This document shows, one piece after another, positions 4,776-41,742 of a stretch of 64,000 nucleotides of DNA. Numbering within the stretch: position 1 is the stretch's first letter; each line of letters begins with the position of its first letter. Below the pieces are notes generated by a model, which was not told the origin of the DNA, ran no database searches, and saw nothing but the letters and a program-made list of their open reading frames with translations. The stretch is from the NCBI GenBank assembly GCA_039566865.1, contig CM076947.1:8935501-8999500 (forward strand), read 5' to 3'. The stretch is from Aurelia coerulea. Lineage: Eukaryota; Cnidaria; Scyphozoa; Semaeostomeae; Ulmaridae. Position numbers and translations under genes: made by a program.

Positions 4776-4974
4776 AAGTCCATATTACGCAGCCATTTTG
4801 TTGATGGAATTTTAAATGATACTATGCATTATACCGGGGTGAAGAATAAGCAGGTATTGGAGTATATTTTCAGCATAGTTAAAACAAAGGCAAGTCATAT
4901 TACAATTTGGCGTGGCAAAGACTGAATCAACAAAAGAACTCCACTCTCCGCTTTTTGCCATTTTGTGATGAATA

Positions 4975-5846
4975 CCGCGTGCGCCAAAATAAACTATGCA
5001 CTTTTGGCAGGCCACGATAAATCGTACACTGAACCGATTTTGAAGATATATCACTTAATCTTTAGCAGAAAGCCTGAATTAGATTCTAAGATTTTTTGCA
5101 AATTTTTCCATTTTCAATTTTTAGAGCTACAGGCGAGTTTCTTAAAATTTTCGTTTTCGAAAACACTGAAAACGGTCAAAAAACGTTGATCAAATTTTCT
5201 AAAGACTCATCATGAATGGACAAAGAGAAAATGTTTTCAGCGTGATTTGGGGATTTGGAAATTGATCATTGTAAACTTCTGCACGAGTGTTATTTCAAAG
5301 ATTGGCTTGTTGCGAAATTCTGTAGTAGTTTCAATAAAGTGCCGCCCCAAAAGCCGTCATAAATCAAAAATGTAACAAAACCCCATGCTTGCTGGCCCCA
5401 TGACTCTTCCTCGCTTGTCTTTTAACCCCCTTGATACAGGAACACAGCCTGCAGCAAAGCATACATTCAATGACATTACAAAAGAAAAGAAATTTCCTTA
5501 TATTCTTGAAAATATTATTACATTTCTCACAAGATAGTACAAACTCTCGTACAGCAGCTTACAATTAGTCGATTTCTAAATCCCAAATCACCACGAAAAA
5601 GTTTTCTCTTTGTCCATTCATGTCGATTCTTTAGAAAGCTTGATCGACGTTTTTTGATCATTTTCAGTGTTTTCGAAAACAAAAATTTTAAGAAACTCGC
5701 TTGTAGCTCTAAAAACTGAAAACACAAAATGCTAGAATCTAATTCAGGCCTTCTGCTAAAGATCAAGTCTTAAATCTTCAAAATCGGTCTTGTGTATGAT
5801 TTATCGTGGCCTGCCAAACGTGCATAGTTTATTTTGGCGCACCCGG
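4975..5846. mobile_element. 872-bp fold-back element with long terminal inverted repeats (TA target)
   Basis: The left arm (4975 to about 5285) begins CCGCGTGCGCCAAAATAAAC. The right arm (about 5530-5846) is its reverse complement with a few changes and ends GTTTATTTTGGCGCACCCGG. Both ends are flanked by TA (4973-4974 and 5847-5848), as in Tc1/mariner-type insertions. The arms are about 310 bp and no transposase is encoded, so it is non-autonomous. A piece of one arm recurs at 21,867-22,010. Confidence 0.75.
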
Positions 5847-5910
5847 TACAGCCTATACATTCTTCAAACTTGGGCAATAGAATATTTATCATTGATGTCT
5901 GTGCGCACAG

Positions 5911-6480
5911 CTATGTAATCAAAGAGCCCGACAAAATTTTTATCTTCAGCAATGGAGGTACCATGTTCAGTAGTAGTTGATGATTGCACACGAATAAGTC
6001 TGTCTGCTGATACTTCCCCCTATGTGCAAGTTCTGAAACAACTTGTGATTTGTACTTTACTGCATTTAAAGCGGGGACACATATTTTCAAATCGAACATT
6101 GCATCTCTCATTTGATCTACATCTTCGATGGCATCAGATTCTTGAGTTAAGGCATTTTGACATTCATTAATTAAAGATTGATCGATACTTTCATTGATCA
6201 CGCTCTCTTCCTTGTTTTCTTCAAAAGATAGAAATCCATCTTCATTGTTGAACGCTGACTGTCTCACACCTGATGTAACTTCTTCTTCTCCCAGCATTTC
6301 ATCCAACATGATTTCAACTTGAATGAACTTAAATGGGTCTTGAATCCAATCATTATCAACTCAAGCATCCTCTTCTGTGTGCCATTTCTATAGCTTTGTC
6401 TACCTCTTCTTTCCAGGCAATTGCTACCTCTGCCTTTGATAGATATATTTTTTTGTAAATCAATCAATTTAGCATTAAGC
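5911..6480 (-). pseudogene. Decayed, frameshifted gene of unknown family
   Basis: Read on the minus strand, three overlapping frames give one plausible protein only if frameshifts are allowed: AWKEEVDKAIEMA near 6385-6425, then WIQDPFKFIQVEIMLDEMLG near 6285-6350, then an acidic stretch (FLSFEENKEESVINESIDQS) down to about 6170, and a tail to 5911. The pattern of sensible residues switching frame at about 6425 and 6360 is typical of an inactivated gene. I do not recognise the family. The 5' side is cut by the inverted-repeat element that starts at 6494. Confidence 0.35.
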
Positions 6481-6493
6481 TGCCTCCTTTTCA

Positions 6494-7970
6494 CTTTTTT
6501 CCGGGTTTCGGGTTCAGGTCTCGGATTCAAGGTTTCGGGTTTAAGGTTTCGGGCTTAAGGTTTTGGGTTTAAGGCTTCGGGTTCAAGGTTTCAACTTGTA
6601 ATTACTTGGAATTGCTTGGAATTGCTTGCAATTGCTTGCAATTGGAATTACTTGGAATTTGTAATCATTTGGAATTGGCAGCTCTAGAAAAGTGACTAAT
6701 GTACACCCACCTTGTTTCTCACCATTTAACATCAAGTAATAAACTATAAGAACGAACCAAAAAATAGTCTTCTTTGCAATCGAACGTGAACTGAAACGAT
6801 AATAATACGGGAGACTTCACTATCGGATCACACTGGTGTGTATGCGCCAGAATGATAATGATTTATGATCGAAGATTTTACAGTTAACGCAAAACACCTT
6901 TTCCATAAAATAAACTACTGATGCAAATCCCCGTGTGAGCGGATAGTGGAGCCCCCCCCCCCAGGCATTAACGTAACAAAACGAAGCAGCAAACTGCAAT
7001 AGGCAGCAACAATAAACTTAATAGTAATCTCAAAATCAATTTTTCTGTCCATGTAACTTCTAAAGTGACATTGTTATTTTGCAGTCAACAAATCTAATTT
7101 TCAAATTTCTTTAACACACCTTTAAATAAAGTTATCACTAGTACTAGAGAGGTTGGTAAACTGATTTCTCGTTGATAGCGCCCACTCTCAAATAAGCCCC
7201 TCTTCTACATATTGTACCATGCGCATACTACCCACTTTTTATAAGAAACTGGTTTATAAGAAACTAGTACTATGATGACCAACAATTGAAGAAACTCTAG
7301 TACTACGCTCAAGAACAGATAAGAAACACTAAAACTTTATTTCTGTATGTCTCTCCTATTCTATATCTCTCTAACAAAGGTACCTTAATCTTTTCTTGAC
7401 TTTTAGCTGCAAAATTGGTAAATTTTTGCCTTGATGTGCATCGCTTCTTCTTGATGACAATGTCAATGCAAAGTGGAAGCCCTTTGTCGAGAAGAAGGCT
7501 CAACTTCGGACAATACCGCAATTTTAGGCCCAAAAATAAGAAACTAATTAAGAAACTTTTACTACTAAAACACCAAAATTTTCATGCGAAATTAAGAAAC
7601 TTTTAGTACTAAGTCCTGATCCAAGTTTCTTATAAAAAAAGTGTAACCGGTTTTGTGTTGCACATGACAATATAAAACCTGAGGTCTTAAAAGTACAGAC
7701 CGAGCTTGCGAGGCTCCTTATTACTAACCATAGTCTAAAAATATAAAATAATTCACTAAAGCTAATTGTCAAAAGAACAATTGGCATGAGTTTATTGTTA
7801 TATCTCTTGTAGTATCTCTCAAAAAACGCCGCCCCCCCCCCCCCCGCTCAAAAACATCAAAATTTCAACCCGGTCCAAATAGGGTTAAACCCGAAACCTT
7901 AAACCCGAACCCTTAAACCCGAAACCTTGAACCCGAGACCTGAACCCGAAACCTGAAACCCGGAAAAAAG
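6494..7970. mobile_element. 1.48-kb element with telomere-like iterated terminal repeats
   Basis: The left end is CTTTTTTCCGGGTTTCGGG followed by iterations of a 14-bp unit (GGTTTCGGGTTTAA, degenerate) to about 6590. The right end (about 7881-7970) is the inverse and ends ...CCCGGAAAAAAG. The interior holds no protein-coding evidence; it contains a smaller MITE (7233-7643), a G/C-capped fragment (about 6808-6965) and a C run at 7830-7845. This is inferred to be a non-autonomous DNA transposon with subterminal arrays. I could not define a target duplication. Confidence 0.55.
7233..7643. mobile_element. MITE with CACTTTTTATAAGAAACT termini
   Basis: The left end CACTTTTTATAAGAAACT and the right end AGTTTCTTATAAAAAAAGTG are inverted repeats, with internal AGTACTA palindromes. 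It sits inside the larger element of 6494-7970. Related TTATAAGAAACT sequence recurs at 42,506-42,710 and, in tandem, at 46,741-46,915. Confidence 0.5.
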
Positions 7971-10006
7971 TTTGTCCGCTATGAACTAGAAGTAACGAAC
8001 CGTTGATGAGTGCGTGCATTCCTTTTCTAAATTTTAGTTGCCATAAATCCAGGAATCATGTATGAAGCAATGAAAGTTGACCAGAAATCCTTCACAGAAG
8101 ACAAATTTAACTCTTGAATTGTTTCAAGATAGAAATGTGGTTTTGAAATTTGTTTTCAGATTCTTGTGACATCCAGTGATTCTCTTTCATGATTCTTTAT
8201 TTTGTTACTTTTGCCCGATTCTTGTAGTTTTATGAGGATTCTGCAATTGAAAGAAATTTGTACTATGAAAAGTAGCTATTTGCTCCTTGCACCCTTTAGT
8301 TGATTTGATGAAAGCATGGAAGTGAGTAGCCTACGCGTAGACCCATTATCCCAAAGGAGGAAAGGCACTGACAGTCCTTGAATAATCTAACTCCAAAATG
8401 TATTACCTAGCTAGGGCATCAAACGGCTTCAAACACAACATGGACACAAGTACTTTCACAAGCTACTTGCACCAAGGAAAACTAATCGTCCGACCTTACT
8501 TAGCCTAACTTATCCGGTCACTAATTAAGGAAATATCTTCTGCATATCATGAATAACTTTAGATAACTTTGGGGAACAACAAGATCGAAATTTTAGCTGT
8601 ATTACATACCTCCCTATCGTAAAAAAAAGGAATCGTCCTCGATTCTGACTTAATCTAGATCTAACAAAAAAAAAATGATGTCTGACTCTAATTGTACATA
8701 CGATTGTCTCGTTTCCTTTCTTGACTCTGCGGTAAAACATAAATAACGATAGTAATGTTGCTCCGATTCGTTAAAGTTGCGATATATCATTCCGTGCATC
8801 CGTTTCCTGATATCGTTCCCGTGGTATTCTTCTTTGCTCGTCCATCGTTCGTTCTTCTCTGCTCAGGCTCGTGGTGAAAACATCGTATCAAAGACAAATG
8901 CAAATCTTACTAAATTTCAGTCGGGTGTTCAGGGCGTTCGAGCTCTTAAATCAAATGCATGACAAGTGTTCGTCGCCTTCCTCAGTCGAAATCCGGGCTG
9001 TCTCTCAAATTTGAAGAAATCAGCGGCGTGTTTAGGGTGTTGGTTTCTCTCCAGACAAAAAATGAAAAGAGCATTTGCGCCTTAGACCAAAGATAACATT
9101 TCAAATATCAATGTCTCAGCTAAAGCTTGATAAAGGTCATAACCAATCTTGAATCTTCTTCAGAATGGGTTCGTGGTCTGTTTCCAGCACCAATAACAAT
9201 AATAATCCCGCTCCTGTCACCAAATGTAAACTGGTTATTTTTGTTCCAAGAGCGTTGTCACAATACTAAGGCCAACTAGATGTCACAAAATGTGATCTTC
9301 ATGGAACCAAATGTAATAGCGGATGTATGCGAGCGGTCTGACAAAGAAAGTCAATCAGCAAAGACAACTACTAATTATATCTTAATTCTTTTCTCTCATA
9401 TTTTCTTTGAGTATTCCGTTGAACGTATATATATATCTAGATATATTACTGTCACCAAATGTGAACTGATGTGTGTGTGCGGTTCGGCGAGGTGACTTGC
9501 GTCCCTGCCATTGAACCTGAAGACTTCGTTATTCTCCAAGCAAATATGTTTATAATGCTACACAAACAATAGTTACTTCGCGACTATCAAAACAAAGGAT
9601 CTTATTGGTTGATGCATGATCTTAATGTGTCAAATCTGATGTCAATGATAAACAATATTGCAACAAAAGAGTATGTTCTGGGGAATTCTAGCTAAAGGAA
9701 TAATAGCAATCATTCTACAACGAGATGCAAAGGAATCATTCAGTCTAATTATTCCTGTGATGACTGAAGATCTTAATCCGATCCAAAGATTAACTTGTTT
9801 CACATTCTTAATGGACCATACAAACAAATATAAATGAATCTAGCAACTGTGGACTTCTGCAACTTTGTTGATCTAAGTTTAATTGGTTTCTAGGCGTTAC
9901 CTCTACTCTTGCATACTATGTGACGTTTTCTGTTTCTAAGGCTAGAGTAATTCTGTTGGCTCATCTTTCAGAGCATCCTAAATAGCACAGAATTAACTGC
10001 GTCTAG
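7971..10006. other. Region without a recognised gene
   Basis: There are only short open frames with no recognisable content. 'CTGTCACCAAATGTRAAC' occurs twice (near 9215 and 9450), suggesting old repeat copies. A TA-rich tract lies near 9427-9446. Confidence 0.35.
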
Positions 10007-12962: not shown

Positions 12963-13895
12963 GTGAGGCCAGATCTTGTAAAATCATTAATCTTTTTCAT
13001 GTTTACAAAATGCACCTATTGATGAAGCAAAGTCCGTTCATGCGATTTTTCTGTTATATCTATTGCCCATTTTGCATATATGTAATAATGTAGCCCTTGA
13101 TTGGCTGTAAATTAGCAATTTTTAATTGCTGCCTACTGTAAATGACGTAATGAGGATGATGGTTATGAGGATTATTTCTCCAAAAGTTAAGAAACATGCA
13201 GTCAAAATCGAAAAATGGTTATTCAACCTCAACGAGATTCTAAAGAGACTAGAGAGAAATTTGATATATCCTTGACGCATGCCTGAAGATCCTCAGAAGC
13301 AGTGTTTAAAGTTTAAAGTATAAATGAGTTTAAAGTATTTCTATCCAATTAAACCGTATGTCTTTATTGAAGGTTTTTCTCTGCTTACTGGCATTCAAGC
13401 TCACCTTCGCAAATGAACCATCAACTCGTAAGTAATTGCCTTTGTAAATTCCTGCAGATACAAATTCACAGGTGCATAAAAACGTAACTCCCAAACTCTC
13501 TCCACAGATAAAAACGTTCTGAAAATTTTCTCCAGTCTCTCCATAGATAATAAGCTTCTGAAAATTTCTGAATTGACAACTTTGAAGAAATCTATAATGG
13601 CAATAAATGCAACATGAAACACACCTACTAGCAGAATATCAGTTCATTATTGCTTGTAGTTACATAGAAACGGGTCTTTTGAACAAAGATTGTGACGAAA
13701 AGCATTGTAGCATAATCAATAGCCATCCGAAGTACAAATTGACAAATATTTCCAATACGAGAAATTGTTCCCTTGACATGCATTGGCTCCACCTCTGCTC
13801 GCATCTTTCTGCAAGAATAGTCACTAAATTACTGCTACCAAATGGGCGGCATTGAAACATAATGATAGAGCACTACAAATAAACTCTCTTTGTAG

Positions 13896-19549: not shown

Positions 19550-20888
19550 GTAATCATTATTCATGTTCCCCACGAAATGTCTTTTAATTTAGAATTTAGT
19601 AGAGAATAAATACTGTGCAATCGCACTTAGCTATAGATAGTTCCGGCTATTTTAAAGAGAAATGTCAGAGAAATAAGGCAACATATGTTAGGGGCCTTGA
19701 CAATTAGGGCATTCTAACAACAGTTTATTATTTTTCATTGTACTTGATGATGTTGAGCTATCATCAAATCAATTGGACAAATTAAGGCTCTCAGCCATCC
19801 TTTGTATACCGGATGAGTAAAAAAGGCTTGGCGTTTGAGAAGCTACTGCTCGCTAGTCGCTGGACATACAAGCAATGATATTTTGCAACATCTGATTGAA
19901 TATCCAATATTTTCAAATATTCTTACAACGTTTCTTGGTTGAAACTGGTCACTCCGTTCAGATTTTACAAGGGATTTCCAGAAAAAGTTCCTTCGAGAAA
20001 CCTTTAGAACGTGCTAAAATTTGGGGCAAGTTTCCTGATATTTCTAGCTTACAGCAATGTCTTCAGCACTCTTTTGCACGTGCTATCCTCTTGGGCTAAT
20101 GCAAAAACATTCAACGAGAGGATTCCATTCTTGCAAGAGGACAATATACATGAATGTATCTGAATGCCATTACTGCCACGAAGGAAAATAAAGGGAAACT
20201 ATGCTCTTCGTCTTCATCAAAGTCGCCCATATCAACAGGAAGGAATTGCCAAGTAAAGACGGGTAACTTACTGAACCTAATTGGACAAGTAAGGTTCCAA
20301 ATCTTTAAAGAGGTTGGTGTAAAATTCAATGATCTATTTCTTTCAACTGAATTACTTCAAAGAAACTTTGTTTTTTTTGTTATGATTCTGCTGTTGAACT
20401 TTTTCTGAAATCTACAATACTTTCAGAATTTGAGTTTTTTCTCCTTTTTCGAGAATTCAAGAAAAATGTTCAAAACAACTTAAAACCATCGTAATTTCTA
20501 AACTGTTTGATGTAAAATGAAATAATTTCCAAGAAAGGCTTAGTTTATGAATTTCTACAATTTATAATCAAGCAAAAGTCTGTCACTTACATGGTTTATG
20601 ATTTAGAAATTTGATGACGTCCCATCAACAAATGAGGTGTTTTTTGACAAATTGTCGTTGAAAATATTAAATTTTTAGGAGGAGATCCGAGAAAAGCAGA
20701 TCTCGATTGATTTTGCGTTGCCTAGCAACAGATCATGTGACTAATTAGCACAACACTTTCGCCTAGCAAACCATGACTTCTCTACAGATGCATAATTAGA
20801 ATACAACATGTTGAAGATGGCAGATCAATTCATTTAAGTTTCCTATCGCTGTTAACTTGCTGAAACATTTCGGTATTTTCTTTTGCAG

Positions 20889-21866
20889 TGGTGATCCCAG
20901 ATGCAACGCTGTCGTCTTTGCCCAACCCAGCAACATCTAACCCATCATCCAACCCATCGACATCCATAGACACCCATCGACATCCAACCCATCGACATCC
21001 AACCCATCGACATCCAACCCATCGACATCCAACCCATCGACATCCAACCCATCGACATCCAACCCATCGACATCCAGCCCATCGACATCCAACCCATCGA
21101 CATCAACTCATCAACATCCAACCCATCGACATCCAACCCATCGACATCCAACCCATCGACATCCAGCCCATCGACATCCAACCCATCGCCATCGACATCC
21201 AACCCATCGACATCTAACTCATCAACATCCAACCCATCGACATCCAACCCATCGACATCCAACCCATCGACATCCAACCCATCGACATCCAACCCATCGA
21301 CATCTAACTCATCAACATCCAACCCATCGACATCCAACCCATCGACATCCAACCCATCGACATCCAGCCCATCGACATCCAACCCATCGACATCAACCCA
21401 TCGACATCCAACCCATCGACATCCAACCCATCGACATCTAACCCATCGACATCCAACCCATCGACATCCAACCCATCGACATCTAACTCATCAACATCCA
21501 ACCCATCGACATCCAACCCATCGACATCCAGCCCATCGACATCCAACCCATCGACATCTAACTCATCAACATCCAACCCATCGACATCCAACCCATCGAC
21601 ATCCAACCCATCGACATCCAGCCCATCGACATCCAACCCATCGACATCTAACTCATCAACATCCAACCCATCGACATCCAACCCATTGACATCCAACCCA
21701 TCGACATCCAGCCCATCGACATCCAACCCATCGACATCTAACTCATCAACATCCAACCCATCGACATCCAACCCATCGACATCCAACCCATCGACATCCA
21801 ACCCATCGACATCAATCGACATCTCATCGACATCGACATCTCATCATTTTGAAGATTCGTTATTGG
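20889..21866 (+). CDS. Exon 5: Ser/Thr/Pro-rich stalk encoded by a 15-bp minisatellite
   Basis: A strong acceptor (TATTTTCTTTTGCAG, ending at 20888) opens phase 1 with VIPDATLSSLPNPATSNPSS and then (Asn-Pro-Ser-Thr-Ser)n from the unit AACCCATCGACATCC. As sequenced, three units (near 20970, 21104 and 21393) are 14 bp, so the frame passes NPSTS to THRHP to IQPID (TAA at 21215-21217) and back to NPSTS. The three single-base losses sum to three. From 21393 the NPSTS frame is open to SIDISSTSTSHHFEDSLLDL and a TAG (21872-21874) that lies in a transposon fragment beginning about 21,867. No consensus donor was found at the 3' side. The reading is therefore a stalk exon with allele- or assembly-level frameshifts and a transposon-damaged end, or a secreted form ending here. 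Confidence 0.5.
20940..21838. repeat. 15-bp minisatellite, about 60 copies
   Basis: Unit AACCCATCGACATCC with variants AGCCCATCGACATCC, AACTCATCAACATCC, a TCT-ending form, one 21-bp copy near 21180-21200 and three 14-bp copies. A higher-order pattern is visible: an AACTCATCAACATCC unit recurs about every 75-105 bp, always after a TCT-ending unit. On the minus strand it gives long open frames of (Gly-Leu-Asp-Val-Asp)n, a consequence of the unit being 5 codons without stops. Confidence 0.95.
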
Positions 21867-22010: not shown

Positions 22011-22873
22011 GAATTCTAAAAATTCAAAACTCGTGCATGATTCCAACCTTTTCATGAAATTGCAAATTATTCCTTTTTTAGCTAAAAATGCAAATTATTG
22101 CTCAAATGCTGAAGATTCATCGTGCCGTAGCTCTGTCGTTTCTGTCCCGAAAGAACTAACCTTGGTGCTATTGTGATGTAGGGACTCTTGGACACATATG
22201 TTCGTATTGTCGTTCAAAGCAATAGTTGTTTACTTGATGTTGTGTAAAATGGCGAGGCGTGATGTGAGTTCATTGCCTTGTTCCGTCTACGTTCAAACAC
22301 GATGATAGGTACCAGACTCTCTAAAGATTTGAGAGTCTGGTACCCAGGTAGCGAAAGGACAAAATAACGACCACCTGTTCACTCTGTTTGGTCTTTGCCA
22401 TTTTTCAAACAAATATTAAAAGATGGGTTTGGAACCCGGGGGAGGTACTCCGATACTTGACCTGACGAGATGTGCCGCTCAACAGTGTGTCCTTATAGTA
22501 AGCAAAAAGTGCAATTGTCCTCAATTATGACGTCATAGTGACGTCATGGATATAATGAAGAATTAAAAAAGTAGCCTATTGTGTGGATTTTGTTCCTATA
22601 CACCATTGTACTAAGTGTCATCCTCATATGTACAATATTGGCGAAGTTACGGAGGGGGGCACCTGTTACTAGGATGGTCGAAAAAGCCCGGTAGTAATAG
22701 GGTTAAAAAGACAACTATTTGCATAGTCAGTAAATTGGGAAGTATAAAAGTGGGAGGTCTCGTTGAATACAAATTAAAGCAAATAATAATTAGAATCAGA
22801 TAATTAGAAGATTGTTTAATCAATATTCTTGTCAATGTCGTCTTGCTGAAAGATTTTGGTGTCTTTTTTCCAG

Positions 22874-22921
22874 TCACAGAGCCGACTCCGACAACAACCA
22901 ACAACAAACAACAAACAACCG
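22874..22921 (+). CDS. Stalk exon R1 (48 nt, phase 1-1)
   Basis: Acceptor GTCTTTTTTCCAG, donor CCG|GTAAGACTC. Encodes TEPTPTTTNNKQQTT plus split codons, so it inserts 16 residues. Thr/Pro-rich and likely O-glycosylated if extracellular. Because length is a multiple of three and both sides are phase 1, inclusion or skipping keeps the frame. Confidence 0.6.
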
Positions 22922-23977
22922 GTAAGACTCAGACATGTAGTCACAGGGGCTTCGTTATAAAAGTAGCAAAGAAGAAACAATGCGCAAAACGAGTATGGAT
23001 CATTTCTTCTTGCTCCTTCGCAGATGTCACGTATCAACCAATACTTAGTCGTTCTATTTCTGCTACTTTAGAAGGGAGCTCCTTGTGGCTTAGATGGTTA
23101 CAATTGTCCATCTTATTGATAATGCATTAACATTTAGAAATATCTTGCATGTTGTAAAGACAAGACCCCTAGACCCTAGAACCCCTGAGACTCCTAGGAC
23201 CCTTCCGTACTAAAATTCATCAGAGCGTCAAACAATTTATAGAAATATACCTTTAATTACGGTCTTATTCTGCAGAACAAACGTAAGAAACTATCCTATT
23301 CCATATGAAGCCCTTAAATTTGGTCGAAGCATACTTCCCCTTGTTTTTTGTACTTTGGTACTCGATATTCAGTTCAAGAAATGAAAGATTAAGAAACTTC
23401 CCAGTGGGTGATTTCTGGTAAACAGAATAACACAAGATCTAATAATGTCAAAATTTTATCACGGTTATCGTTGATATATCCGCTGTTCCTTAAGAAATTG
23501 CTTAGTCCAAAAGGTTAACAGCTCTGGTTTCCAGGAAGATGAAAATTTGGGTTTTCAAGATTAACACGTCTGCTCTCAAAGTACCAATATCAACAAATGA
23601 GCTATCTATGTTCTAGTTAACTGTGGAGGAACATTTTTAGAGCTATTAGACATTGATTGGAGGTAAATTGACAGCATTGGAGCCAATCAAATCCATATAC
23701 ATTTTTTGGGACACCCGGTACTTTACATAAAAACTTTTGGCCAGCAGCTATCTTAGCCTTGTGTCCTCAACATTACATTGAATTTTTCGAAAGTGTTATC
23801 TATGGAAGAAAACTCATCTTAAAAAGACCACCATTTGCATAGTCAGTGAATTGGGTAGTATAAAAGTGAAAGTCTCGTTGATATCAAATTAAAGAAAATA
23901 ATCATTAAAATAAGATTGTTTAATCAATATTCTTGTCGGTGTCGTCTTGCTTAAAGATTTTGACGACTTTTTTCCAG

Positions 23978-24025
23978 CCACAAAGCAGACTCCGCGAACA
24001 ACAAACAACCAACAACCAACAACCG
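23978..24025 (+). CDS. Stalk exon R2 (48 nt, phase 1-1)
   Basis: Second array unit. Acceptor CTTTTTTCCAG, donor CCG|GTAAGACTC. Encodes TKQTPRTTNNQQPTT, a variant shared with R7: Lys-Gln replaces Glu-Pro, and Arg replaces the first Thr of TTT. The reading frame and length are conserved despite the substitutions. Confidence 0.58.
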
Positions 24026-25085
24026 GTAAGACTCAGACGTGTAGTCACAGGGGCTTCCTTATAAAGTAGCAAAGAAGAAACAATGCGCAAAACGAGTATG
24101 GATCATTTCATCTTGCTCCTTCGCATATGCCACATTTTAACCAATTCTTAGTCGTTTTATTTCTGCTACTTTAACAAGGGGGCTCCCTGTGGCTTAGATG
24201 CTTACAATTGTCCATCTTATTGATAATGCATTAACATTTAGAAATACCTTGGATGTTGTAAAGACAAGACCCCTAGACCCTAGAACCTCTGAGACTCCTA
24301 GGACCCTTCCGTACTAAAATTCACCAGAGCGTCAAACAAATTATAGAAATATACCTTTAATTACGGTCTTATTCTGCAGAACAAACGTAAGAAACTATCC
24401 TATTCCATATGAAGCCCTTAAATTTCGTCGAAGCATACTTCCCCTTGTTTTTTGTACTTTGGTACTCGATATTGAGTTGATGAAATTAATGAAAGATTAA
24501 GAAACTTCCCAATGGGTGATTTCTGGTAAACAGAATAACACAAGATCTAATAATGTCCAAATTTTGTCACGGTTATCGTTGATATATCCGCTGTTCCTTA
24601 AGAAATTGCTTAGTCCAAAAGGTTAACAGCTCTGGTTTCCAGGAAGATGAAAATTTGGGTATTCAAGATTAACACGTCTGCTCTCAAAGTACCAATATCA
24701 ACAAATGAGCTATCTATGTTCTAATTAACTGTGGAGGAACATTTTTAGAGGGATTATACATTGATTGGAGGTAAATTGACAGCATTGGAGCCAATCAAAT
24801 CCATATACATTTTTTGGGACACCCGGTACTTTACATAAAAACTTTTGGCAAGCAGCTATCTTAGCCTTGTGTCCTCAACATTACATTGAATTTTTCGAAA
24901 GTGTTATCTATGAAAGAAAACTCATCTTAAAAAGACCACAATTTGCATAGTCAGTGAATTGGGTAGTATAAAAGTGAAAGTCTCGTTGAAATCAAATTAA
25001 AGAAAATAATCATTAAAATAAGATTGTTTAATCAATATTCTTGTCAATGTCGTCTTGCTGAAAGATGTTGGTGTCTTTTTTCCAG

Positions 25086-25133
25086 CCACAGAGCCGACTC
25101 CGACAACAACCAACAACACACAACAAACAACCG
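25086..25133 (+). CDS. Stalk exon R3 (48 nt, phase 1-1)
   Basis: Third unit (the shortened one). Encodes TEPTPTTTNNTQQTT between a TTTTTTCCAG acceptor and a GTAAGACTC donor. Same peptide as R5. The deletion in this unit lies downstream and spares the exon. Confidence 0.6.
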
Positions 25134-25651
25134 GTAAGACTCAGACATGTAGTCACAGGGGCTTCCTTATAAAAGTAGCAAAGAAGAAACAATGCGCAAA
25201 ACCAGTATGGATCATTTCTTCTTGCTCCTGCGCAGATGCCACGTTTCAACCAATTCTTATTCGTTTTAATTCTGCTACTTTAACAAGGGGGCTCCTTGTG
25301 GCTTAGATGGTTACAATTGTCCATCTTATTGATAATGCATAAACATTTAGAAATATCTTGCATGTTGTAAAGACATTTTTTGGGACACCCGGTACTTTAC
25401 ATAAAAACTTTTGGCAAGCAGCTATCTTAGCCTTGTGTCCTCAACATTACATTGAATTTTTCGAAAGTGTTATCTATGAAAGAAAACTCATCTTAAAAAG
25501 ACCACAATTTGCATAGTCAGTGAATTGGGTAGTATAAAAGTGAAAGTCTCGTTGAAATCAAATTAAAGAAAATAATCATTAAAATAAGATTGTTTAATCA
25601 ATATTCTTGTCAATGTCGTCTTGCTGAAAGATGTTGGTGTCTTTTTTCCAG

Positions 25652-25699
25652 TCACAGAGCTGACTCCGACAACAACCAACAACACACAACAAACAACCG
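25652..25699 (+). CDS. Stalk exon R4 (48 nt, phase 1-1)
   Basis: Fourth unit. Encodes TELTPTTTNNTQQTT; one Pro to Leu change against R3. The splice sites are intact. Confidence 0.58.
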
Positions 25700-26760
25700 G
25701 TAAGACTCAGACATGTAGTCACAGGGGCTTCCTTATAAAGTAGCAAAGAAGAAACCATGCGCAAAACGAGTATGGATCATTTCTTCTTGCTCCTTCGCAT
25801 ATGCCACATTTTAACCAATTCTTATTCGTTTTATTTCTGCTACTTTAACAAGGGGGCTCCCTGTGGCTTAGATGGTTACAATTGTCCATCTTATTGATAA
25901 TGCATTAACATTTAGAAATGCCTTGCATGTTGTAAAGACAAGACCCCTAGACCCTAGAACCTCTGAGACTCCTAGGACCCTTCCGCACTAAAATTCACCA
26001 GAGCCTCAAACAAATTATAGAAATATACCTTTAATTACTGTCTTATTCTGCAGAACAAACGTAAGAAACTATCCTATTCCATATGAAGTCCTTAAATTTG
26101 GTCGAAGCATACCTCCTTTTTGTTTTTTGTACTTTGGTACTCGATATTGAGTTGATGAAATTAATGAAAGATTAAGAAACTTCCCAATGGGTGATTTCTG
26201 GTAAACAGAATAACACAAGATCTAATAATGTCCAAATTTTGTCACGGTTATCGTTGATATATCCGCTGTTCCTTAAGAAATTGCTTAGTCCAAAAGGTTA
26301 ACAGCTCTGGTTTCCAGGAAGATGAAAATTTGGGTATTCAAGATTAACACGTCTGCTCTCAAAGTACCAATATCAACAAATGAGCTATCTATGTTCTAAT
26401 TAACTGTGGAGGAACATTTTTAGAGGGATTATACATTGATTGGAGGTAAATTGACAGCATTGGAGCCAATCAAATCCATATACATTTTTTGGGACACCCG
26501 GTACTTTACATAAAAACTTTTGGCAAGCAGCTATCTTAGCCTTGTGTCCTCAACATTACATTGAATTTTTCGAAAGTGTTATCTATGAAAGAAAACTCAT
26601 CTTAAAAAGACCACAATTTGCATAGTCAGTGAATTGGGTAGTATAAAAGTGAAAGTCTCGTTGAAATCAAATTAAAGAAAATAATCATTAAAATAAGATT
26701 GTTTAATCAATATTCTTGTCAATGTCGTCTTGCTGAAAGATTTTGGTGTCTTTTTTCCAG

Positions 26761-26808
26761 CCACAGAGCCGACTCCGACAACAACCAACAACACACAACA
26801 AACAACCG
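26761..26808 (+). CDS. Stalk exon R5 (48 nt, phase 1-1)
   Basis: Fifth unit. Encodes TEPTPTTTNNTQQTT, identical in peptide to R3. The surrounding unit is nearly identical to unit 3 as well, indicating a recent copy. Confidence 0.6.
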
Positions 26809-27868
26809 GTAAGACTCAGACATGTAGTCACAGGGGCTTCCTTATAAAAGTAGCAAAGAAGAAACAATGCGCAAAACCAGTATGGATCATTTCTTCTTGC
26901 TCCTGCGCAGATGCCACGTTTCAACCAATTCTTATTCGTTTTAATTCTGCTACTTTAACAAGGGGGCTCCTTGTGGCTTAGATGGTTACAATTGTCCATC
27001 TTATTGATAATGCATAAACATTTAGAAATATCTTGCATGTTGTAAAGACAAGACCCCTAGACCCTAGAAACCATGAGACTCCTAAGACCCTTCCGTACTA
27101 AAATTCATCAGATCGTCAAACAAATTATAGAAAAATACCTTTAATTTCTGTCTTATTCTGCAGAACAAACGTAAGAAACTATCCTATTCCATATGAAGCC
27201 CTTAAATTCGGTCGAAGCATACCTCCTTTTTGTTTTTTGTACTTTGGTACTCGATATTGAGTTGATGAAATTAATGAAAGATTAAGAAACTTCCCAATGG
27301 GTGATTTCTAGTAAACAGAATAACACAAGATCTAATAATGTCCAAATTTTATCACGGTTATCGTTGATATATTCGCTGTTTCTTAAGAAATTGCTTAGTC
27401 CAAAAGCTTAACACTCTGGTTTCCAGCAAGATGAAATTTGGGTTTTCAAGATTAACATGTCTACTCTAAAAGTACCAATATCAACAAATGAGCTATCTAT
27501 GTTCTAGTTAACTGTAGAGGAACATTTTTAGAGGGATTATACATTGATTGGAGGTAAATTGACAGCCTTGGAGCCAATCAAATCCATATACATTTTTTGG
27601 GACACCCGGTACTTTAATAAAAAACTTCTGGCCAGCAGCTATCATAGCCTTGTGTCCTCAACATTACATTGAATTTTTCGAAAGTGTTATCTATGGAAGA
27701 AAACTCATCTTAAAAAGACCACTATTTGCATAGTCAGTGAATTGGTAAGTATTAAAGTGAAAGTCTCGTTGAAATCAAATTAAAGAAAATAATCATTAAA
27801 ATAAGATTGTTTAATCAATATTCTTGTCAATGTCGTCTTGCTGAAAGATTTTGGTGTCTTTTTTCAAG

Positions 27869-27916
27869 CCACAGAGCCGACTCCAACAACAACCAACAAC
27901 AAACAACAAACAACCG
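27869..27916 (+). CDS. Stalk exon R6 (48 nt, phase 1-1)
   Basis: Sixth unit. Encodes TEPTPTTTNNKQQTT, identical in peptide to R1 although the nucleotides differ (CCA for CCG). The acceptor reads TTTTTTCAAG, slightly weaker than in the other units. Confidence 0.55.
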
Positions 27917-28985
27917 GTAAGACTCAGACATGTAGTCACATGGGCCTCCTTATAAAATAGCAAAGAAGAAACAATGCGCAAAACGAGTATGGATCATTTT
28001 TTCTTGATCCTGCGCAGATGCCATGTTTCAACCAATACTTAGTCGCTTTATTTCTGCAACTTTACAAGGGAGCTCCTTGTGGCTTAGATGGTTACAATTG
28101 TCCATCTTATTGATAATGCATTAACATTTAGAAATATCTTGCATGTTGTAAAGACAAGACCCCTAGACCGTAAAACCACAAAGTCTCCTAGGAACCGTCC
28201 GTACTAAAATTCATCAGATCGTCAAATAAATTATAGAAAAATACCTTTAATTACTGTCTTATTCTGCAGAACAAACGTAAGAAACTATCCTATTTCATAT
28301 GAAGCCCTTAAATTCGGTCGAAGCATACTTCCTTTTTGTTTTTTGTACTTTGGTACTCGATATTGAGTTGATGAAATTAATGAAAGATTAAGAAACTTCC
28401 CAATGGGTGATTTCTGGTAAACAGAATAACACAAGATCTAATAATGTCCAAATTTTATCACGGTTATCGTTGATATATCCGCTGTTTCTTAAGAAATTGC
28501 TTAGTCCAAAAGCTTAACACTCTGGTTTCCAGGAAGATGACATTTGGGTTTTCAAGATTAACATGTCTGCTCTAAAAGTACCAATATCAACAAATGAGCT
28601 ATCTATGTTCTAGTTAACTGTAGAAGAACATTTTTAGAGGGATTAGACATTGATTGGAGGTAAATTGACAGCGTTGGAGCCAATCGAATCCATATACATT
28701 TTTTGGGACACCCGGTACTTTACATAAAAAATTCTGGCCAGCAGCTATCTTAGCCTTGCGTCATCAACATTACATTGAATTTTTCGAAAGTGTTATCTAT
28801 GAAAGAAAACTCATCTTAAAAAGACCACTATTTGCATAGTCAGTGAATTGGGAAGTATTAAAGTGAAAGTCTCCTTGAAATCAAATTAAAGACAATAATC
28901 ATTAGAATAAGATAATTAGAAGATTGTTTAATCAATATTCTTGTCGGTGTCGTCTTGCTGAAATATGTTGACGTCTTTTTTCCAG

Positions 28986-29033
28986 CCACAAAGCAGACTC
29001 CGCGAAAAACAAATAACCAACAACCAACCACCG
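28986..29033 (+). CDS. Stalk exon R7 (48 nt, phase 1-1)
   Basis: Seventh unit. Encodes TKQTPRKTNNQQPTT, related to R2. Acceptor TTTTTTCCAG, donor CCG|GTAAGACTC. After it the array decays at about 29,788. Confidence 0.55.
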
Positions 29034-29889
29034 GTAAGACTCAGACATGTAGTCACAGGGACTTCCTTATAAAGTAGCAACGAAGAAACCATGCGCAAAA
29101 CGAGTATGGACCATTTCTTCTTGCTCCTTCGCAGATGCCACGTTTCAACCAATTCTTAGTCGTTTTATTTCTACTACTTTACAAGGGAGCTCTCTGTGGC
29201 TTAGATGGTTACAATTGTCCATCTTATTGATAATGCATTAACATTTAGAAATATCTTGCATGTTGTAAAGACAAGACCTCTAGACCCTAGAACCCCTGAG
29301 ACTCCTAGGACCCTTCCGTACTGAAATTCATCAGAGCGTCAAACAAATTATACAAAATACCTTTAATTACTGTCTTATTCTGCAGAACAAACGTAAGAAA
29401 CTATCCTATTTCATATGAAGCCCTTAAATTCGGTCGAAGCATACTTCCTTTTTGTTTTTTGTACTTTGGTACTCGATATTGAGTTGATGAAATTAATGAA
29501 AGATTAAGAAACTTCCCAATGGGTGATTTCTGGTAAACAGAATAACACAAGATCTAATAATGTCCAAATTTTATCACGGTTATCGTTGATATATCCGCTG
29601 TTTCTTAAGAAATTGCTTAGTCCAAAAGCTTAACACTCTGGTTTCCAGGAAGATGACATTTGGGTTTTCAAGATTAACATGTCTGCTCTAAAAGTACCAG
29701 TATCAACAAATGAGCTATCTATGTTCTAGTTAACTGTAGAAGAACATTTTTAGAGGGATTAGACATTGATTGGAGGTAAATTGACAGCGTAAGAAACTAT
29801 CCTATTCCATATGAAGCCCTTAAATTCGGTTGAAGCATACTTCCCCTTGTTTTTTGTACTGTGGTTCTCGATATTGAGTTGATGAAATT

Positions 29890-31379
29890 AAGCGCTTCGC
29901 AAAGAGAAGGGACTTTAAGCAACCAGGACAGCATCGCCAGCCAGAAAATCGACTTTTATGAAACAAACTATTTATAATTTTGTGTACATTACGTTCTTAT
30001 GATATTGAAAATGGCAAGAGAAAACCTCCCACTTCAGTTAAATACGTTGGAGCAATATTCTTCCTTGAAAATTAATATTTATACCAAGAGAGTTTTACAT
30101 CACAGCCCTAAAGTTGAAGAAAAGCACGTCAGAAATTCGATTACCAAGTTGTGCAATTGAAAAGGACAACACTGTGGTCTCTCAGGGGAAGCAAATTTGC
30201 ACGAAAAAACAAGGAATCATTTGTAGCCGAAATTTGGAAAGAAAAGCAAGAAACACTGCGATGCAGTTGCATCACCAGCTTGGGGCCTTAAAGTCCCCAA
30301 AAACACGAGTATGATGACGAGTGTATTCAGGCCATTAGGTTACCATAAGGTTTTCCTGCCAAGCGCGTACGTAGCTGCCATGTAGACGCGGTCTATGGGC
30401 AAATGTCGGCGCTGGGTTGTTGCAATGCAAATTAAACAATGACCACTAGACTCTATTTGTGTTTAGATATTGCAAAAACAAAAAAGTGGTACATAGCTAA
30501 TGTTTTGCTGCCTGAGAATGCGTGCGCTGCAATTTTTGATTTTGGAAAGAAAACTGGCCTTCCTTCGTTTTGAGAAGCAGAAGTGAATTTTCAAAAAATT
30601 TGGTAAGTATGACATCTGCCTTAATTTTCTCATTTCTTACAAATATGAGATTCTCTTATCTTCTCTGCTGTTTTGATTATTCATGGTTTTACAGACAAAA
30701 GGACTATAACAATGAAGGGTCTATGCCTGGTAGGCATTGCTTGAGTTTACACTGATAAACTGCAGGCGTGCCACTGAAACAAGACGATATCAATGAAGGG
30801 CCTAGACTGATTATATGTTCGTAGGTTATCGCTATTGATAGGCTGATGGACGCTATAACTACGACTCATGGACTTACGCTTCCAGAAACGGACATGGCCT
30901 AAATCACCTGCTATTTTTTCTTGAAACCACCGACCCTAAATCGCCGCAAAAAGTGGTTTTCCTGAAGTGCTACACTGCAAAACAAGCTATCAGTACTTAG
31001 ATGAATGTTTCTTCAAGCTATTAAAGCAAAAAAATCCTACCTATAAGTGCTATTTTCGTTGTTTGGGGACGCAAAAGATCTCGTAAATTCGTTCGCTACT
31101 TTGAGATTTTGATCGTTGGAGCAGTTCAGTCGAACGCGTTGTTCGAATTCGTTTGTTTGCCTTTGGCGGGAAGTTTAAATTGAAGAAGAATCAGCCAATC
31201 CAATCAAGTTATGACAAGTCTTGTATCCTGATTGGTCCAGGAACAAATTTGTTCCTAGCGAGAATTTTTTTGCCGTTTTGAGAAGAGTTGGTCCATAAGG
31301 CCCTTGACTGGAGCGACAACAACAACATTAATTCACTTCAATTAGATGAGCGTAAGTTGAGGGTCCTTATGTAGTGAGG
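29890..31379. other. Intronic stretch without a recognised exon
   Basis: A single diverged copy of the 82-bp repeat lies at about 30,690-30,800. The open frame at 30,114-30,314 has no splice sites or family signal. Nothing else recognised. Confidence 0.35.
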
Positions 31380-31384
31380 CTATG

Positions 31385-31800
31385 TAAGGGCCTATGTCTG
31401 GAAGGCACTGCTTGAGTTTCCACTGCTGACTGCTTGAGTTTACACATTGAAACAGGACGATATCAATGAAGGGCCTATGTCTACCAGGCACTGCTAGTTT
31501 ACACTAATAAACAGCACGCATGCCACTGATACAGAACGATATCAACGAAGGGCCTATGTCTACAAGGCACTGCTTGAGTTTACACTAATAAACAGCACGC
31601 ATGCCACTGAAACAGAACGATATCAATGAAGGGCCTATGCCTGGAAGGCACTGCTTGAGTTTACACTAATAAACAGCACGCATGCCACTGAAACAAGACG
31701 ATATCAATGAAGGGCCTATGTCTACAAGGCACTGCTTGAGTTTACACTAATAAACAGCACGCATGCCACTGAAACAGAACGATATCAATGAAGGGCCTAA
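31385..31800. repeat. 82-bp tandem repeat, five copies
   Basis: Units begin GGGCCTATGTCT and contain AGGCACTGCTTGAGTTTACA and GCATGCCACTGAAACA. Starts are near 31,387, 31,468, 31,549, 31,631 and 31,713. No reading frame is conserved, so it is treated as non-coding. Confidence 0.85.
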
Positions 31801-33139
31801 GGGCATTGTGAAAGACGACACTGATAATGTTCGGCATTTATTTGATTCATTTACCAATCTCATCCCAGAGTGAGTTCGTTGTTTTACATCCACTCTTGGA
31901 CACAAGAGGCCATTCAACAATTTGATTGGCTATTCGAAAACAATTAAAAAAACACAAACCACTTCTCGAAAACTTCCTAATCATTCGAATAACAACAATG
32001 TAATTTTGTCACTAAGAAATGTTGACAAACGTTGCTATTTTGGACAGATTACGTACAGATTAAAAATGTTGCTATTTTGGACAGATTCGATCGAAGCGTA
32101 CAAGGGTGTTCATTCCGCTTCCCAATCAGCTTATGACGTAAAACACCCTGGGAAAGAGGTTGATGATGTGTGGAAAACATTCGATAAAATATTTGGGAGG
32201 ATGATATAGGCCAGTCAAAAGGAAACTCGGAAAGTTTCGCATTGCAATTTTTATGAATAATACATTTTTCCCTATTTTTAATCATATCTCACATACACCA
32301 TTAAATTCATTTTTAAATTTTGAACTGTTAATAATTTCATTTACTTAATCAATCATTTTTAACTTTCCTTTAGAGTTTCTCCAATTAACAGTTTGCGAGA
32401 ATCTAAAGGAATATTAAAATGTGAACAACTTGAACAATGAATTGGTTAATAAATTGTTTAAATAATCAACTATAAAACAGCATGAAGTACGTTATTTCTA
32501 TCAAATATTAATGTTAACAGCATGGACTCAATCCGACAGTGGTACAAAGGGCGGACACCTTTCCTTTTCTGAATTCAATCTGTTCATTGACATGGCGTGT
32601 TTGAAAGTACACACTGTTCATTCAAGAATCGCTCTACCCAACTACCTACTCTAGCCTCTAATCCACTTAACACTCTACTCTTTACTTTGTAATCTACTCA
32701 AGGGCATTGTATGGATTGTGTTTTTCTTCGCAGTCATGTTTTCATAACACTTTACACAGACCAACTGGTGTCCTTTCAAGAAGATGCAAGAATACTTGCA
32801 TGGTTTCAAATTCCGGTGTTCATGTAAAACCAGATCAACTGTTATAAGAGATGAAAACAGGGAACAAGACAGTGCAATTTTTGATAGGTCAACTCTGATA
32901 GTCATTTAACGGGATCACGGGGGGGGGGGGGTCATTTCTTTCATTTCTATTCTTTATACACGTAATCCCTTCAGCTACAAAATAAATTACAAAATAAATA
33001 CATAATTATGTACATAGTAGATTGATTTTTGAATTTATACATAAATAAATGTGTCTAGATGCTGTTCTTCGAGGGAGTCGTGTTTTCGTTTTCAGGCTCA
33101 AGACAATTTCTTAGATTTTTTTTTATTGATAGATCAAGG
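31801..33139. other. Intronic stretch, no recognised gene
   Basis: Two copies of TGTTGCTATTTTGGACAGATT lie near 32,029 and 32,068. A minus-strand frame at 32,675-32,905 has CKYSC...HQLVCVKC, which could be a decayed zinc-binding motif, but nothing around it supports a gene. A run of about 12 G lies near 32,919. Confidence 0.3.
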
Positions 33140-37026: not shown

Positions 37027-37185
37027 GCAAGGAAAGAAGCGTTCTTAAATCGCCAATTTTTCAAGCAACGGTAGTCAGCTTAAGTTTGCTGCTTATCGTT
37101 GTTTTCGCGTTTGGAATTAGACAGTGCATGAGAAACAGAAGACTTCGCCGAATGATTTGGCCAGCAAATTTTACGGGAACGAACG
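37027..37185 (+). CDS. Transmembrane exon of the candidate type I membrane protein
   Basis: 159 nt, phase 1-1, acceptor TTTGCGTTGTAG, donor AACG|GTAAGA. It reads KERSVLKSPIF, then a 19-residue hydrophobic span (QATVVSLSLLLIVVFAFGI), then a basic stop-transfer (RQCMRNRRLRR) and MIWPANFTGTN. The charge pattern places the N-terminal side outside and the basic side in the cytosol. The phase matches all upstream exons, so it would join the Thr-rich stalk directly. The rest of the cytoplasmic tail must lie in a downstream exon, which I did not find in the next 5 kb (all MITEs). Assignment to the same gene as exons 1-5 is inferred from strand, phase and architecture. Confidence 0.68.
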
Positions 37186-39719: not shown

Positions 39720-40660
39720 CCAGAGTCCTTGCAGCTATTGGACCTACCTTCAGAATACATTCTTGGCTCTTTCTATCAACTGCTGAATATAAATAGTTTT
39801 GAAATCTGATATACATATTCTCTTAGCACATTTAAGGAGCCTAGTATGTCCGGTCTTCCAGCAAAACACCTGAAAAGAAAAGCATTTCCTAGACTCGGAA
39901 AATTGACGGTCCTTGCCCCTCCATTCAAAAAGCAGAATTTCCGCCACTGTATTTGAGGGTGAGATGTAGTAAAATGGTAAACAGTACCAGAATTTATACA
40001 ATGTGGCATTTTTTAATTCTTCATTACATCTCTGATGTTTCAATGACGTAAAGCAAAAATCAGCATTCGAATCAGTTTCGATATTTTTTCAATGTTCTCC
40101 TTTGTTTCTTATTTCTGATTTGTTTCTTTTCCTTATCCCCGATGTTTCTCATTTCTGATGCGCAGAGAATCAGAGGGCCAGCAGCAGCAGCAGCCAACAA
40201 GTAGCAGTAACAACTAACACAACAACAACCAACAACAACCAGCAGCAACAATATAACCAGAGCACAAATAACATACAAGCCAAATGCGACGCAGGCGTGG
40301 TATACGTCACGCCTGCGGCACAGTCAAAAATGACATTTATAAACAATTGGGTGGACAGCAAAACAATTATAGGGAGAAAACAGGAGGAACTCCGCATATT
40401 AAAATTAGATCCGCACGAAGTTTCTGGCCCAAGCGGCCAGAACGCCGTATATGTGCCTTAGACTTATGACAGTGAGTCTCTTGTTTCCCTGTGCTCTTTG
40501 ATTTCAAAATGGCAACTCGGTCAACAGAGACTCATATAATTTCTCTGAAAAACCTTACCCTATTAGGCCAAATATACTGGTTTCATTATGAGTCCCTGTG
40601 AGCAAGGTAACGCAGGGATACGAGGGACTCATCGTCATAAGTCTATGTGCCTAGCACCAG

Positions 40661-41405
40661 GGCCTTGTTGGGGATACGTGCAAGCTCAAGTTGACGTGGA
40701 TATCCTCTCGGGGACTATGAACGCATGCGAAGTGTGTAAATTTTTGCTTATTCGATTACGTATTGCCACTATTTTCATCACGAACTTTTAGTCATTCGAC
40801 AGGCAACCGGAAGTCAGACATTGAAACGAAACCACATCCGCTACAGAACAAGTAATTTTTGATGAGAGAACATTGAAAAGTTTTCATTCAGAATCACTCG
40901 CGATAGCGCTTCATGAAAGCTTGGCAAAGGAATGTATTCATCTGGCTAAGAAATGATATTCATATGCCAACTTACTTAGCTTTGCTTGGTTTGTTTCAAA
41001 TGGCCTCCTTTAAATGTTGTCGAAATAGTACAGAGCGCTGCCGCTATCTTGTTTTGCCTAGGCCAATTTATCAACGCAAGACCAAAAACATTTACTTGTG
41101 CCAAGTTTCCAGAAAGGTCCATCATGAAATCTTTGTTTGCAGCTTCTTGTAGGCATATATCAAACATAACTGCAGTTAAGAATTGATAAAATATAAGCTA
41201 AGTTTCCCACATATCGAGCTGCGAATCTTCCCCGACAGCTTGCTGTCACTGCAACTTTCTTCGCAACGGCTGCAAATATTTGAATGATTGAATTATGTCC
41301 ACAGCGCATGCGTTCATAGTCCCCGTGCTGATTGGCTGTCAAGTTGACCCAAAAAAACAAAGCTGAAAAACAATACGGGGAGTACCATGTATCCCCAACA
41401 AGGCC
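40661..41405. mobile_element. TIR element within arm A (GGCCTTGTTGGGGATAC ends)
   Basis: The left end GGCCTTGTTGGGGATACGTG and right end CATGTATCCCCAACAAGGCC are inverted. Subterminal GGGGACTATGAACGCATGCG and its inverse reinforce this. The sister copy in arm B is at 61,526-62,214. No transposase frame. Confidence 0.65.
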
Positions 41406-41742
41406 ATGTAGTAGGAATGCACATCTGCACCCACATCACGTGCACACCTTGAATCACGTCCACCCAAACACTTGCAGATTTCAGCTCGTTTGGTAGGCCA
41501 TTCCAAATCTGTGGGCCAATAGACATATTTGAAATATTATTATTCTCATAGGTTATGTGTTCAAAAAAACCTTCAAGATTATTGGTCTTACATAGGCTGA
41601 TAAGGGTATTTGCTATTTCCAAATCATCACTTTCATTTCGCATTATACTATTGTGATCCTCCTTGCAAAATTCAATGAGTGTCTCCGCTACTTCAATGTC
41701 AGTAATGCGATTATTCTGAGCTTGAGTGCCGTCGCAATCCAC
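41314..41742 (-). pseudogene. LINE-derived open frame within arm A
   Basis: 142 codons beginning MDCDGTQAQNNRITDIEVAE, close to the frame at 4522-4740, then SNMSIGPQIWNGLPNELKSA, which is the C-terminal LINE block also present at 61,284-61,340. The open frame then continues into the TIR element. It is a chimera of repeat pieces, not a host gene. The RT scrap lies upstream at 41,760-41,895. Confidence 0.55.

What the first reader, a model, noticed from the sequence alone, without database searches (positions are those of the whole stretch)
22697..29889. Satellite-scale tandem array in which every unit carries an intact in-frame 48-nt exon
Seven units of about 1.1 kb each keep a 48-nt exon with polypyrimidine tract, AG acceptor and GTAAGACTC donor. 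All seven are the same length, symmetric phase 1, and encode variants of one Thr/Asn/Gln-rich 15-mer. Exons change at the peptide level (TEPTPTTTNN, TKQTPRTTNN, TELTPTTTNN) while length and frame are kept, even in the unit that lost half its intronic part. This would let unequal crossing-over add or remove 16-residue stalk steps in a surface protein without touching the frame.
Basis: partly seen in the sequence, partly recalled or inferred. Interest (0 to 1): 0.9.

Follow-up and report, generated by a model that had tools for sequence, protein, structure and literature searches.

The report
Tandem mini-exon array in membrane-protein gene
Seven near-identical DNA blocks each carry one small exon-like piece with intact splice signals, apparently part of a fast-changing family of animal membrane-protein genes in which such pieces can be added or removed without disturbing the reading frame; whether they are really spliced and translated still has to be shown.

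Summary
Confirmed: seven units (six ~1.1 kb, one 566 bp) each keep a 48-nt segment with AG acceptor and GTAAGACTC donor; only the phase-1 frame is open in all seven. Arrays of the unit lie at seven other places of this 574-Mb genome. At 8 of 8 array loci a transmembrane-exon region lies 7-23 kb downstream on the same strand. Upstream is a mucin-like (PSTSN)n exon of the same frame whose intron end resembles theirs; its relatives elsewhere precede a different, 51-nt, phase-1 tandem exon. Most likely the 48-mers are stalk exons of a large single-pass membrane-protein family. Not supported: selection for exon length or sequence. Of 40 exons at five loci 3 are broken; indels are as dense in exon as in intron; synonymous changes match the neutral expectation and the two exon classes differ more than their introns. 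In this window the mucin exon is frame-broken and lacks its 3' end, so this copy may be partly dead. No transcript evidence. Known mechanism (tandem exon duplication), unusual variant.

The parts
13358..13427 (+). candidate first coding exon: signal-peptide-like MSLLKVFLCLLAFKLTFANEPST ending in phase 1 at CTC|GTAAGT; TATAAAT just upstream
   Evidence: 3 copies in the genome (3 of 3 candidates scored); D copy carries a stop. Link to the array is weak; the scan required a phase-1 donor
20791..20888 (+). 3' end of the intron before exon E1; resembles the 3' end of the array introns
20889..21840 (+). exon E1 (mucin-like): G|TGGTGATCCC.. = VVIPDATLSSLPNPATSN followed by a 15-nt minisatellite; frame-broken in this copy and without its 3' end and donor (end approximate); (PSTSN)n open at D and G
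22694..29898 (+). array of seven tandem intron-exon units (ends approximate)
22874..22921 (+). 48-nt exon 1, class A, VTEPTPTTTNNKQQTT
23978..24025 (+). 48-nt exon 2, class B, ATKQTPRTTNNQQPTT
25086..25133 (+). 48-nt exon 3, class A, ATEPTPTTTNNTQQTT, in the shortened unit
25652..25699 (+). 48-nt exon 4, class A, VTELTPTTTNNTQQTT
26761..26808 (+). 48-nt exon 5, class A, ATEPTPTTTNNTQQTT
27869..27916 (+). 48-nt exon 6, class A, ATEPTPTTTNNKQQTT (acceptor CAAG)
28986..29033 (+). 48-nt exon 7, class B, ATKQTPRKTNNQQPTT
23380..23720 (.). dispersed, palindromic (MITE-like) repeat inside the intronic part of the unit; given here for unit 1
   Evidence: many hits elsewhere in the genome to this part only, with adjacent hits on the opposite strand
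37027..37185 (+). transmembrane-type exon, 159 nt, phase 1-1: KERSVLKSPIFQATVVSLSLLLIVVFAFGIRQCMRNRRLRRMIWPANFTGTN, donor ACG|GTAAGAG

Best explanation
The units are tandemly duplicated intron-exon modules of a gene for a single-pass membrane protein. Each 48-nt exon, phase 1 at both ends, adds 16 T/N/Q-rich residues to a likely O-glycosylated stalk next to the membrane; the last array exon could join the transmembrane exon directly in frame (G|GC at W, G|TT at G). Unequal exchange and conversion between ~1.1-kb units changes unit number and spreads exon variants; since every exon is symmetric in phase 1, any number of units keeps the frame. Shown from sequence: modules, frame, splice signals, paralogous arrays, number differences between loci, co-location with the transmembrane exon and phase match at the two loci read. 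Inferred: splicing, joining of these exons, surface location, glycosylation, use of length as a trait.
For: 7 of 7 units intact; no other + strand match to the strict exon pattern. Paralogous arrays: six on C1 at 42.66-43.82 Mb and one at 48.85-48.88 Mb, besides the window (40 of 3187 candidates scored). At 8 of 8 array loci a match to the transmembrane-exon region lies 7-23 kb downstream on the array's strand (for G; the exon itself was read only at W and G among these eight). At W and G the only open frame of that exon is phase 1 and holds one hydrophobic helix followed by basic residues; three further family copies read hold a helix too, in the only open frame of L041 and L043 (99% alike) and in one of two open frames of L042. 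Exon E1 upstream has the same frame and a related intron 3' end (unit-only model on E1: E 0.001-0.004 at seven loci; E1-only model on the seven units: 0.013-0.53). At five related loci a 51-nt phase-1 exon follows E1: of 8 copies found 8 are 51 nt, 7 have no stop, 7 have a GT donor; their intron ends match that of E1 (E 1e-12 to 1e-16 for the three second copies, 0.004-0.25 for the five first ones).
Against: No transcript or protein evidence. E1 is broken and lacks its 3' end in the window. E1 is absent from the 50 kb read at A and at F and was not among the scored hits at B, C and E (40 of 550 candidates scored). The signal-peptide candidate has 3 copies and is damaged in D. No sign of purifying selection on the 48-mers. 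Relatives of E1 or of the array peptides in the protein database: one weak fungal match (1.4e-4) and two matches above E 0.5. No folded ectodomain found (10 Pfam scans, part of the sequence); cytoplasmic exons not settled. The transmembrane exon starts in phase 0 in the three family copies without known 48-mer arrays.
Confidence: 0.62

Rival explanations
1. Decaying relic: the exons were once coding, but this window copy (and perhaps most copies) is a pseudogene; unit changes are neutral turnover.
For: E1 is frame-broken and donor-less in W; synonymous fraction is neutral, 6 of 23 distinct within-class changes against about 0.26 expected; 3 of 40 exons are broken; the G array has gaps of 8.4 and 4.4 kb between neighbouring exons, whose content I did not examine.
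Against: In W 7 of 7 exons, and 37 of 40 over five loci, keep AG, 48 nt and GT; the transmembrane exon is open at W and G; E1 could be skipped in frame, since the signal-peptide candidate, the array and the transmembrane exon all use phase 1.
Confidence: 0.25
2. Non-coding satellite: a CAAC-rich tract flanked by chance AG and GTAAG, amplified with a repeat-containing 1.1-kb unit.
For: Low-complexity AACAAC[AC] 7-mer make-up; exon more variable than the unit average (13 of 48 against 114 of 906 sites); indel rate as in intron; a dispersed repeat makes up part of the unit; looser splice patterns do occur elsewhere in the window.
Against: The strict exon pattern is otherwise absent from the + strand; related intron ends before three different exon types; transmembrane-exon region on the same strand at 8 of 8 loci.
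Confidence: 0.1
3. Cassette-exon regulator: the array serves alternative splicing (choice among 48-mers) more than copy-number change in the genome.
For: Two peptide classes (A, B) in conserved order, A first and B last in 5 of 5 arrays read; symmetric phase permits any choice.
Against: Exons within a class encode nearly the same peptide, so choice among them would matter little; no regulatory elements tested.
Confidence: 0.1

Closest known systems
Tandem exon duplication with symmetric (class 1-1) exons in extracellular protein genes (recalled, from no call)
   Same: phase-1 symmetric exon units duplicated in tandem, frame kept for any copy number
   Different: exon is only 48 nt inside a ~1.1-kb unit that includes a dispersed repeat; eight paralogous arrays; a 51-nt sister exon, in two copies at three related loci
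Mucin coding VNTRs (recalled, from no call)
   Same: S/T/P/N-rich repeats of variable number; E1 (PSTSN)n is of this type
   Different: the 48-mers are repeated as separate exons with introns, not inside one exon
ASSET, accelerated segment switch in exons of snake three-finger toxin genes (PMC2474615, passages read; PMC2711939, search listing only)
   Same: introns alike while exon segments become unrelated; here the transmembrane exon of W and G is at chance identity (0.41; shuffled mean 0.45) while BLAST matches in the introns are 82% and 92%
   Different: a transmembrane exon in a membrane-protein family, no relation to venom; the whole exon differs; the 28-42 intron bases right at the exon are less alike (0.71 and 0.82)
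Sp185/333 immune genes of sea urchin (PMC5103432, search listing only)
   Same: clustered, fast-diversifying genes with many repeats
   Different: no sequence relation tested; different exon layout (recalled)

Membership tests
Symmetric tandem exon duplication | duplicated exons flanked by GT-AG introns, same phase at both ends | tested here: met
   7 of 7 in W; 37 of 40 with AG, 48 nt and GT at five loci
Symmetric tandem exon duplication | exons spliced into one mRNA | not testable with these tools
   no RNA data at hand
Single-pass membrane protein gene | transmembrane helix with stop-transfer residues in a phase that fits the array | tested here: met
   W and G, phase 1; the other three copies read start in phase 0
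Single-pass membrane protein gene | signal peptide in the first exon | tested here: inconclusive
   candidate at 13358, 3 genome copies; other hydrophobic ATG frames with a donor exist on both strands
Mucin-like protein | S/T/P-rich tandem repeat in an open frame | tested here: inconclusive
   E1 repeat open as (PSTSN)n at D, G, L033, L034, L035, L037, L038; one stop in L036; broken in W
ASSET-type exon divergence | exon unrelated while introns stay alike | tested here: met
   transmembrane exon, one pair, W against G. For the 48-mers only a 2-3 fold excess between classes
Invertebrate allorecognition or immune receptor | Ig or other recognition domain, or extreme allelic polymorphism | tested here: inconclusive
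   no ectodomain family in Pfam on the + strand of window 8.0-23.0 and 29.8-64.0 kb; rest of the window and the - strand not scanned; polymorphism not testable

The most novel reading that the evidence does not exclude
A large, undescribed family of membrane proteins, with 28 genome places matching the transmembrane-exon region, in which exons turn over faster than introns and in which separate phase-1 mini-exon arrays (48-nt and 51-nt types) act as adjustable rulers for stalk length in fast-evolving recognition receptors.
Probability: 0.25. Interest if true: 0.8.

Novelty: new variant of a known kind. Interest (0 to 1): 0.6.

Why it matters
If spliced, this is a natural system in which the length of a cell-surface stalk is set by the number of separate mini-exons, changeable by unequal crossing-over in steps of 16 residues. 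Eight paralogous arrays in one genome would allow direct tests of how exon copy number evolves. The transmembrane exon, unalignable between W and G although the introns beside it still match, is a second sign of exon-specific change in this family.

Tried and rejected
Selection on the 48-mers: sought as fewer indels and as a synonymous excess; neither found. Pfam ectodomain: none in 10 searches. Found were retroelement domains, an Extensin_1 match on the minisatellite, a GDSL-lipase match beside the retroelement endonuclease, protein-phosphatase-2C pieces, and sub-threshold matches (CT_C_D, CC_PcsB, Fn3_Dep-1, PAN, Zip, Toxin_cobra-type). Not scanned: window 1-8000, 23003-29799 and the whole - strand of the window. 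The weak PAN matches in L036 were looked at and dropped. Codon-position scan of paralogous blocks: too few changes to tell; its output was cut. Exon-like stretch after D 41480: stop after 23 codons in phase 1, dropped. Extra D/A segment at W 34638: no open frame, dropped. W 40159-40458: changes by codon position [6,10,17] hint at coding, strand undecided. Rfam and tRNA: nothing. Papers: six answered searches listed no description of this array; that covers only the held open-access library. My notebook gives E1 as starting at 20890; the answers give 20889. It also calls the transmembrane exon 'proof' of coding, which is too strong.
Full report
OBSERVATION. The window is G000:C5:8935501-8999500 (+) of an unnamed 574-Mb assembly in 294 contigs. 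The array is real: seven units, six of 1093-1117 bp and one of 566 bp, each with one 48-nt exon-like segment, AG acceptor, GTAAGACTC donor, and phase-1 frame open in 7 of 7. With a strict pattern (pyrimidine-rich YAG, GTAAG, length divisible by 3, phase-1 open) the + strand yields only array exons (6 of 7) and the - strand one unrelated pair; a looser + strand scan gave 22 pairs, with 10 in the array and 5 outside it among those listed at 15-45 kb. Within the unit, the part matching 23380-23720 is a dispersed palindromic repeat with many hits elsewhere in the genome.

PARALOGOUS ARRAYS. The unit occurs in arrays at six places on C1 between 42.66 and 43.82 Mb (- strand) and at 48.85-48.88 Mb (+), besides the window (40 of 3187 candidates scored). 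I call them A, B, C, E, D, F in the order of C1, and G. I read 50 kb at four of them (D, F, A, G), later 70 kb at G; B, C and E were not read. Forty exons were found in W (7), D (8), F (8), A (6), G (11). 38 of 40 are 48 nt; F4 has one extra base, D6 an insertion and a displaced donor, F6 an AA in place of AG; 37 of 40 are intact. Two peptide classes exist, A (ATEPTPTTTNN[KT]QQTT) and B (ATKQTPRTTNNQQPTT); the first exon is class A and the last class B in 5 of 5 arrays, which suggests that the array is older than the duplication of the loci. Seven consecutive copies in G share one private variant, as expected of local homogenisation.

SELECTION. In the six full W units 13 of 48 exon sites vary against 114 of 906 elsewhere. 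Over the 40 units, in the 464 aligned bases round the exon and leaving out the rearranged D6 and F6 and the alignment ends, I count one indel event in the 48-nt exon and seven in about 400 nt of intron; the numbers are small. Among the 38 exons of 48 nt, distinct within-class changes are 2 synonymous of 8 (A) and 4 of 15 (B); with all single changes equally likely 0.255 and 0.262 are expected. The phase-1 frame has no stop in 38 of 38, phase 0 has two, phase 2 one; few are expected by chance, so this is weak. Exon divergence between classes is 0.178 against 0.064-0.088 in introns; within class A the exon (0.037) and the 59 columns before it (0.026) are less divergent than the rest (0.069-0.092), within class B they are not. 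So there is no evidence that amino acids or length are held by selection, some excess change between classes, and a hint of conservation of exon and acceptor within class A.

UPSTREAM EXON E1. At 20889 a phase-1 acceptor opens VVIPDATLSSLPNPATSN followed by the 15-nt minisatellite. At D and G the minisatellite reads as (PSTSN)n; in the window it is frame-shifted with stops, and its 3' end is replaced, as in D, by repeat-like sequence. Sixteen places match this exon over query 192-359 at 92-100% (C5, C22, C1, C11) and one more in part (40 of 550 candidates scored). At five of the C5/C22/C11 loci read (L033, L034, L035, L038, and C22:7.24 Mb = L036/L040) E1 is followed by a 51-nt phase-1 exon (VNLATQTPAHINTSTAH), two copies 569 nt apart in L033-L035; none was seen in the 3 kb of L037. 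Of 8 copies found 8 are 51 nt, 7 have no stop, 7 have a GT donor. The intron 3' ends of the 51-mers and of the 48-mers resemble that of E1, significantly for the second 51-nt copies, marginally for the others, but in the right place and strand each time. In L033, L034, L035 and L038 E1 runs into the tail of the next intron without a visible donor.

TRANSMEMBRANE EXON. A scan of 29.85-45 kb for phase-1 hydrophobic or S/T-rich exons gave three rows at two places, of which 37027-37185 has a phase-1 donor. Among exon-like stretches with a helix and a GTAAG donor on both strands of the window in any phase (4 rows + strand, 2 rows - strand) only this one (two overlapping rows) has a length divisible by 3. 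At G, BLAST matches in the introns are 82% over 155 nt before and 92% over 108 nt after (the latter beyond a 1.9-kb insertion in G); the 42 and 28 bases right at the exon are 0.71 and 0.82 alike; the exon is unalignable (0.41; shuffled mean 0.45) and it too encodes a helix with basic residues in its only open frame. Twenty-eight places in the genome match the region (28 of 28 candidates scored): nine nearly over the whole query, nineteen only in intron parts, ten of these on both sides of the exon. Three of the ten were read: exon of 142 nt, one helix each, starting in phase 0; L041 and L043 are 99% alike; L042 has a second open frame. L041 against L042 is 75% alike in the exon, 98% in the intron before it and 82% in the intron after it. 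At 8 of 8 array loci this region lies 7-23 kb downstream of the array on the same strand.

FIRST EXON. A signal-peptide-like ATG exon at 13358-13427 ends in phase 1 (a scan that required this). Without the phase condition the window gives 12 such rows on the + strand, many in one minisatellite, and 4 on the - strand; the D copy has a stop, and three genome copies were found. It is a candidate only.

DATABASES AND PAPERS. Neither E1 nor the array peptides has a credible relative among 5.8 billion proteins (one fungal match at 1.4e-4; two matches above E 0.5, only the 7994 candidates sharing most words scored). Passages of PMC2474615 describe introns alike (>85%) and exon segments switched in snake toxin genes, the nearest described pattern that I found for the transmembrane exon.

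VERDICT. Most likely a tandem mini-exon array for the stalk of a single-pass membrane protein in a large, fast-changing gene family (0.62), with a real chance that the window copy is partly dead. The frame-neutral addition and removal of 16-residue steps follows from the anatomy; that it happens in individuals, is spliced, or is selected has not been shown.

Noticed in passing
window 39720-41526 and 61464-62904 (inverted): Long inverted duplication about 20 kb apart, mostly 95-98% alike, but only 83% in 40188-40536, where changes lean to one codon position; matching sequence also follows the transmembrane exon at G. Perhaps the 3' part of a second, opposite family gene.
   Followed up: partly
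window 46360-48431: Element with 252-nt inverted arms (95%); an 89-92% copy sits inside the E1 exon of the C22:7.24 Mb locus, L040 263-2687.
   Followed up: partly
window about 50223 and 50948: Short protein-phosphatase-2C-like pieces in repeated blocks that also carry endonuclease-type retroelement fragments.
   Followed up: no
window 31448-31799: 81-bp tandem repeat just downstream of the array, also present at D, F, A and G.
   Followed up: no
C1 16.79-17.51 Mb and 22.55-25.33 Mb: Places matching the transmembrane-exon region recur at steps of 160-196 kb in the first cluster; in the second at 281 and 284 kb, but also 561, 699 and 954 kb, as if large blocks were duplicated in tandem.
   Followed up: no
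window 31825-32770: Stretch whose scored matches (40 of 3340 candidates) lie only at the window and the six C1 42.6-43.8 Mb array loci, 96-99% alike; role unknown.
   Followed up: partly
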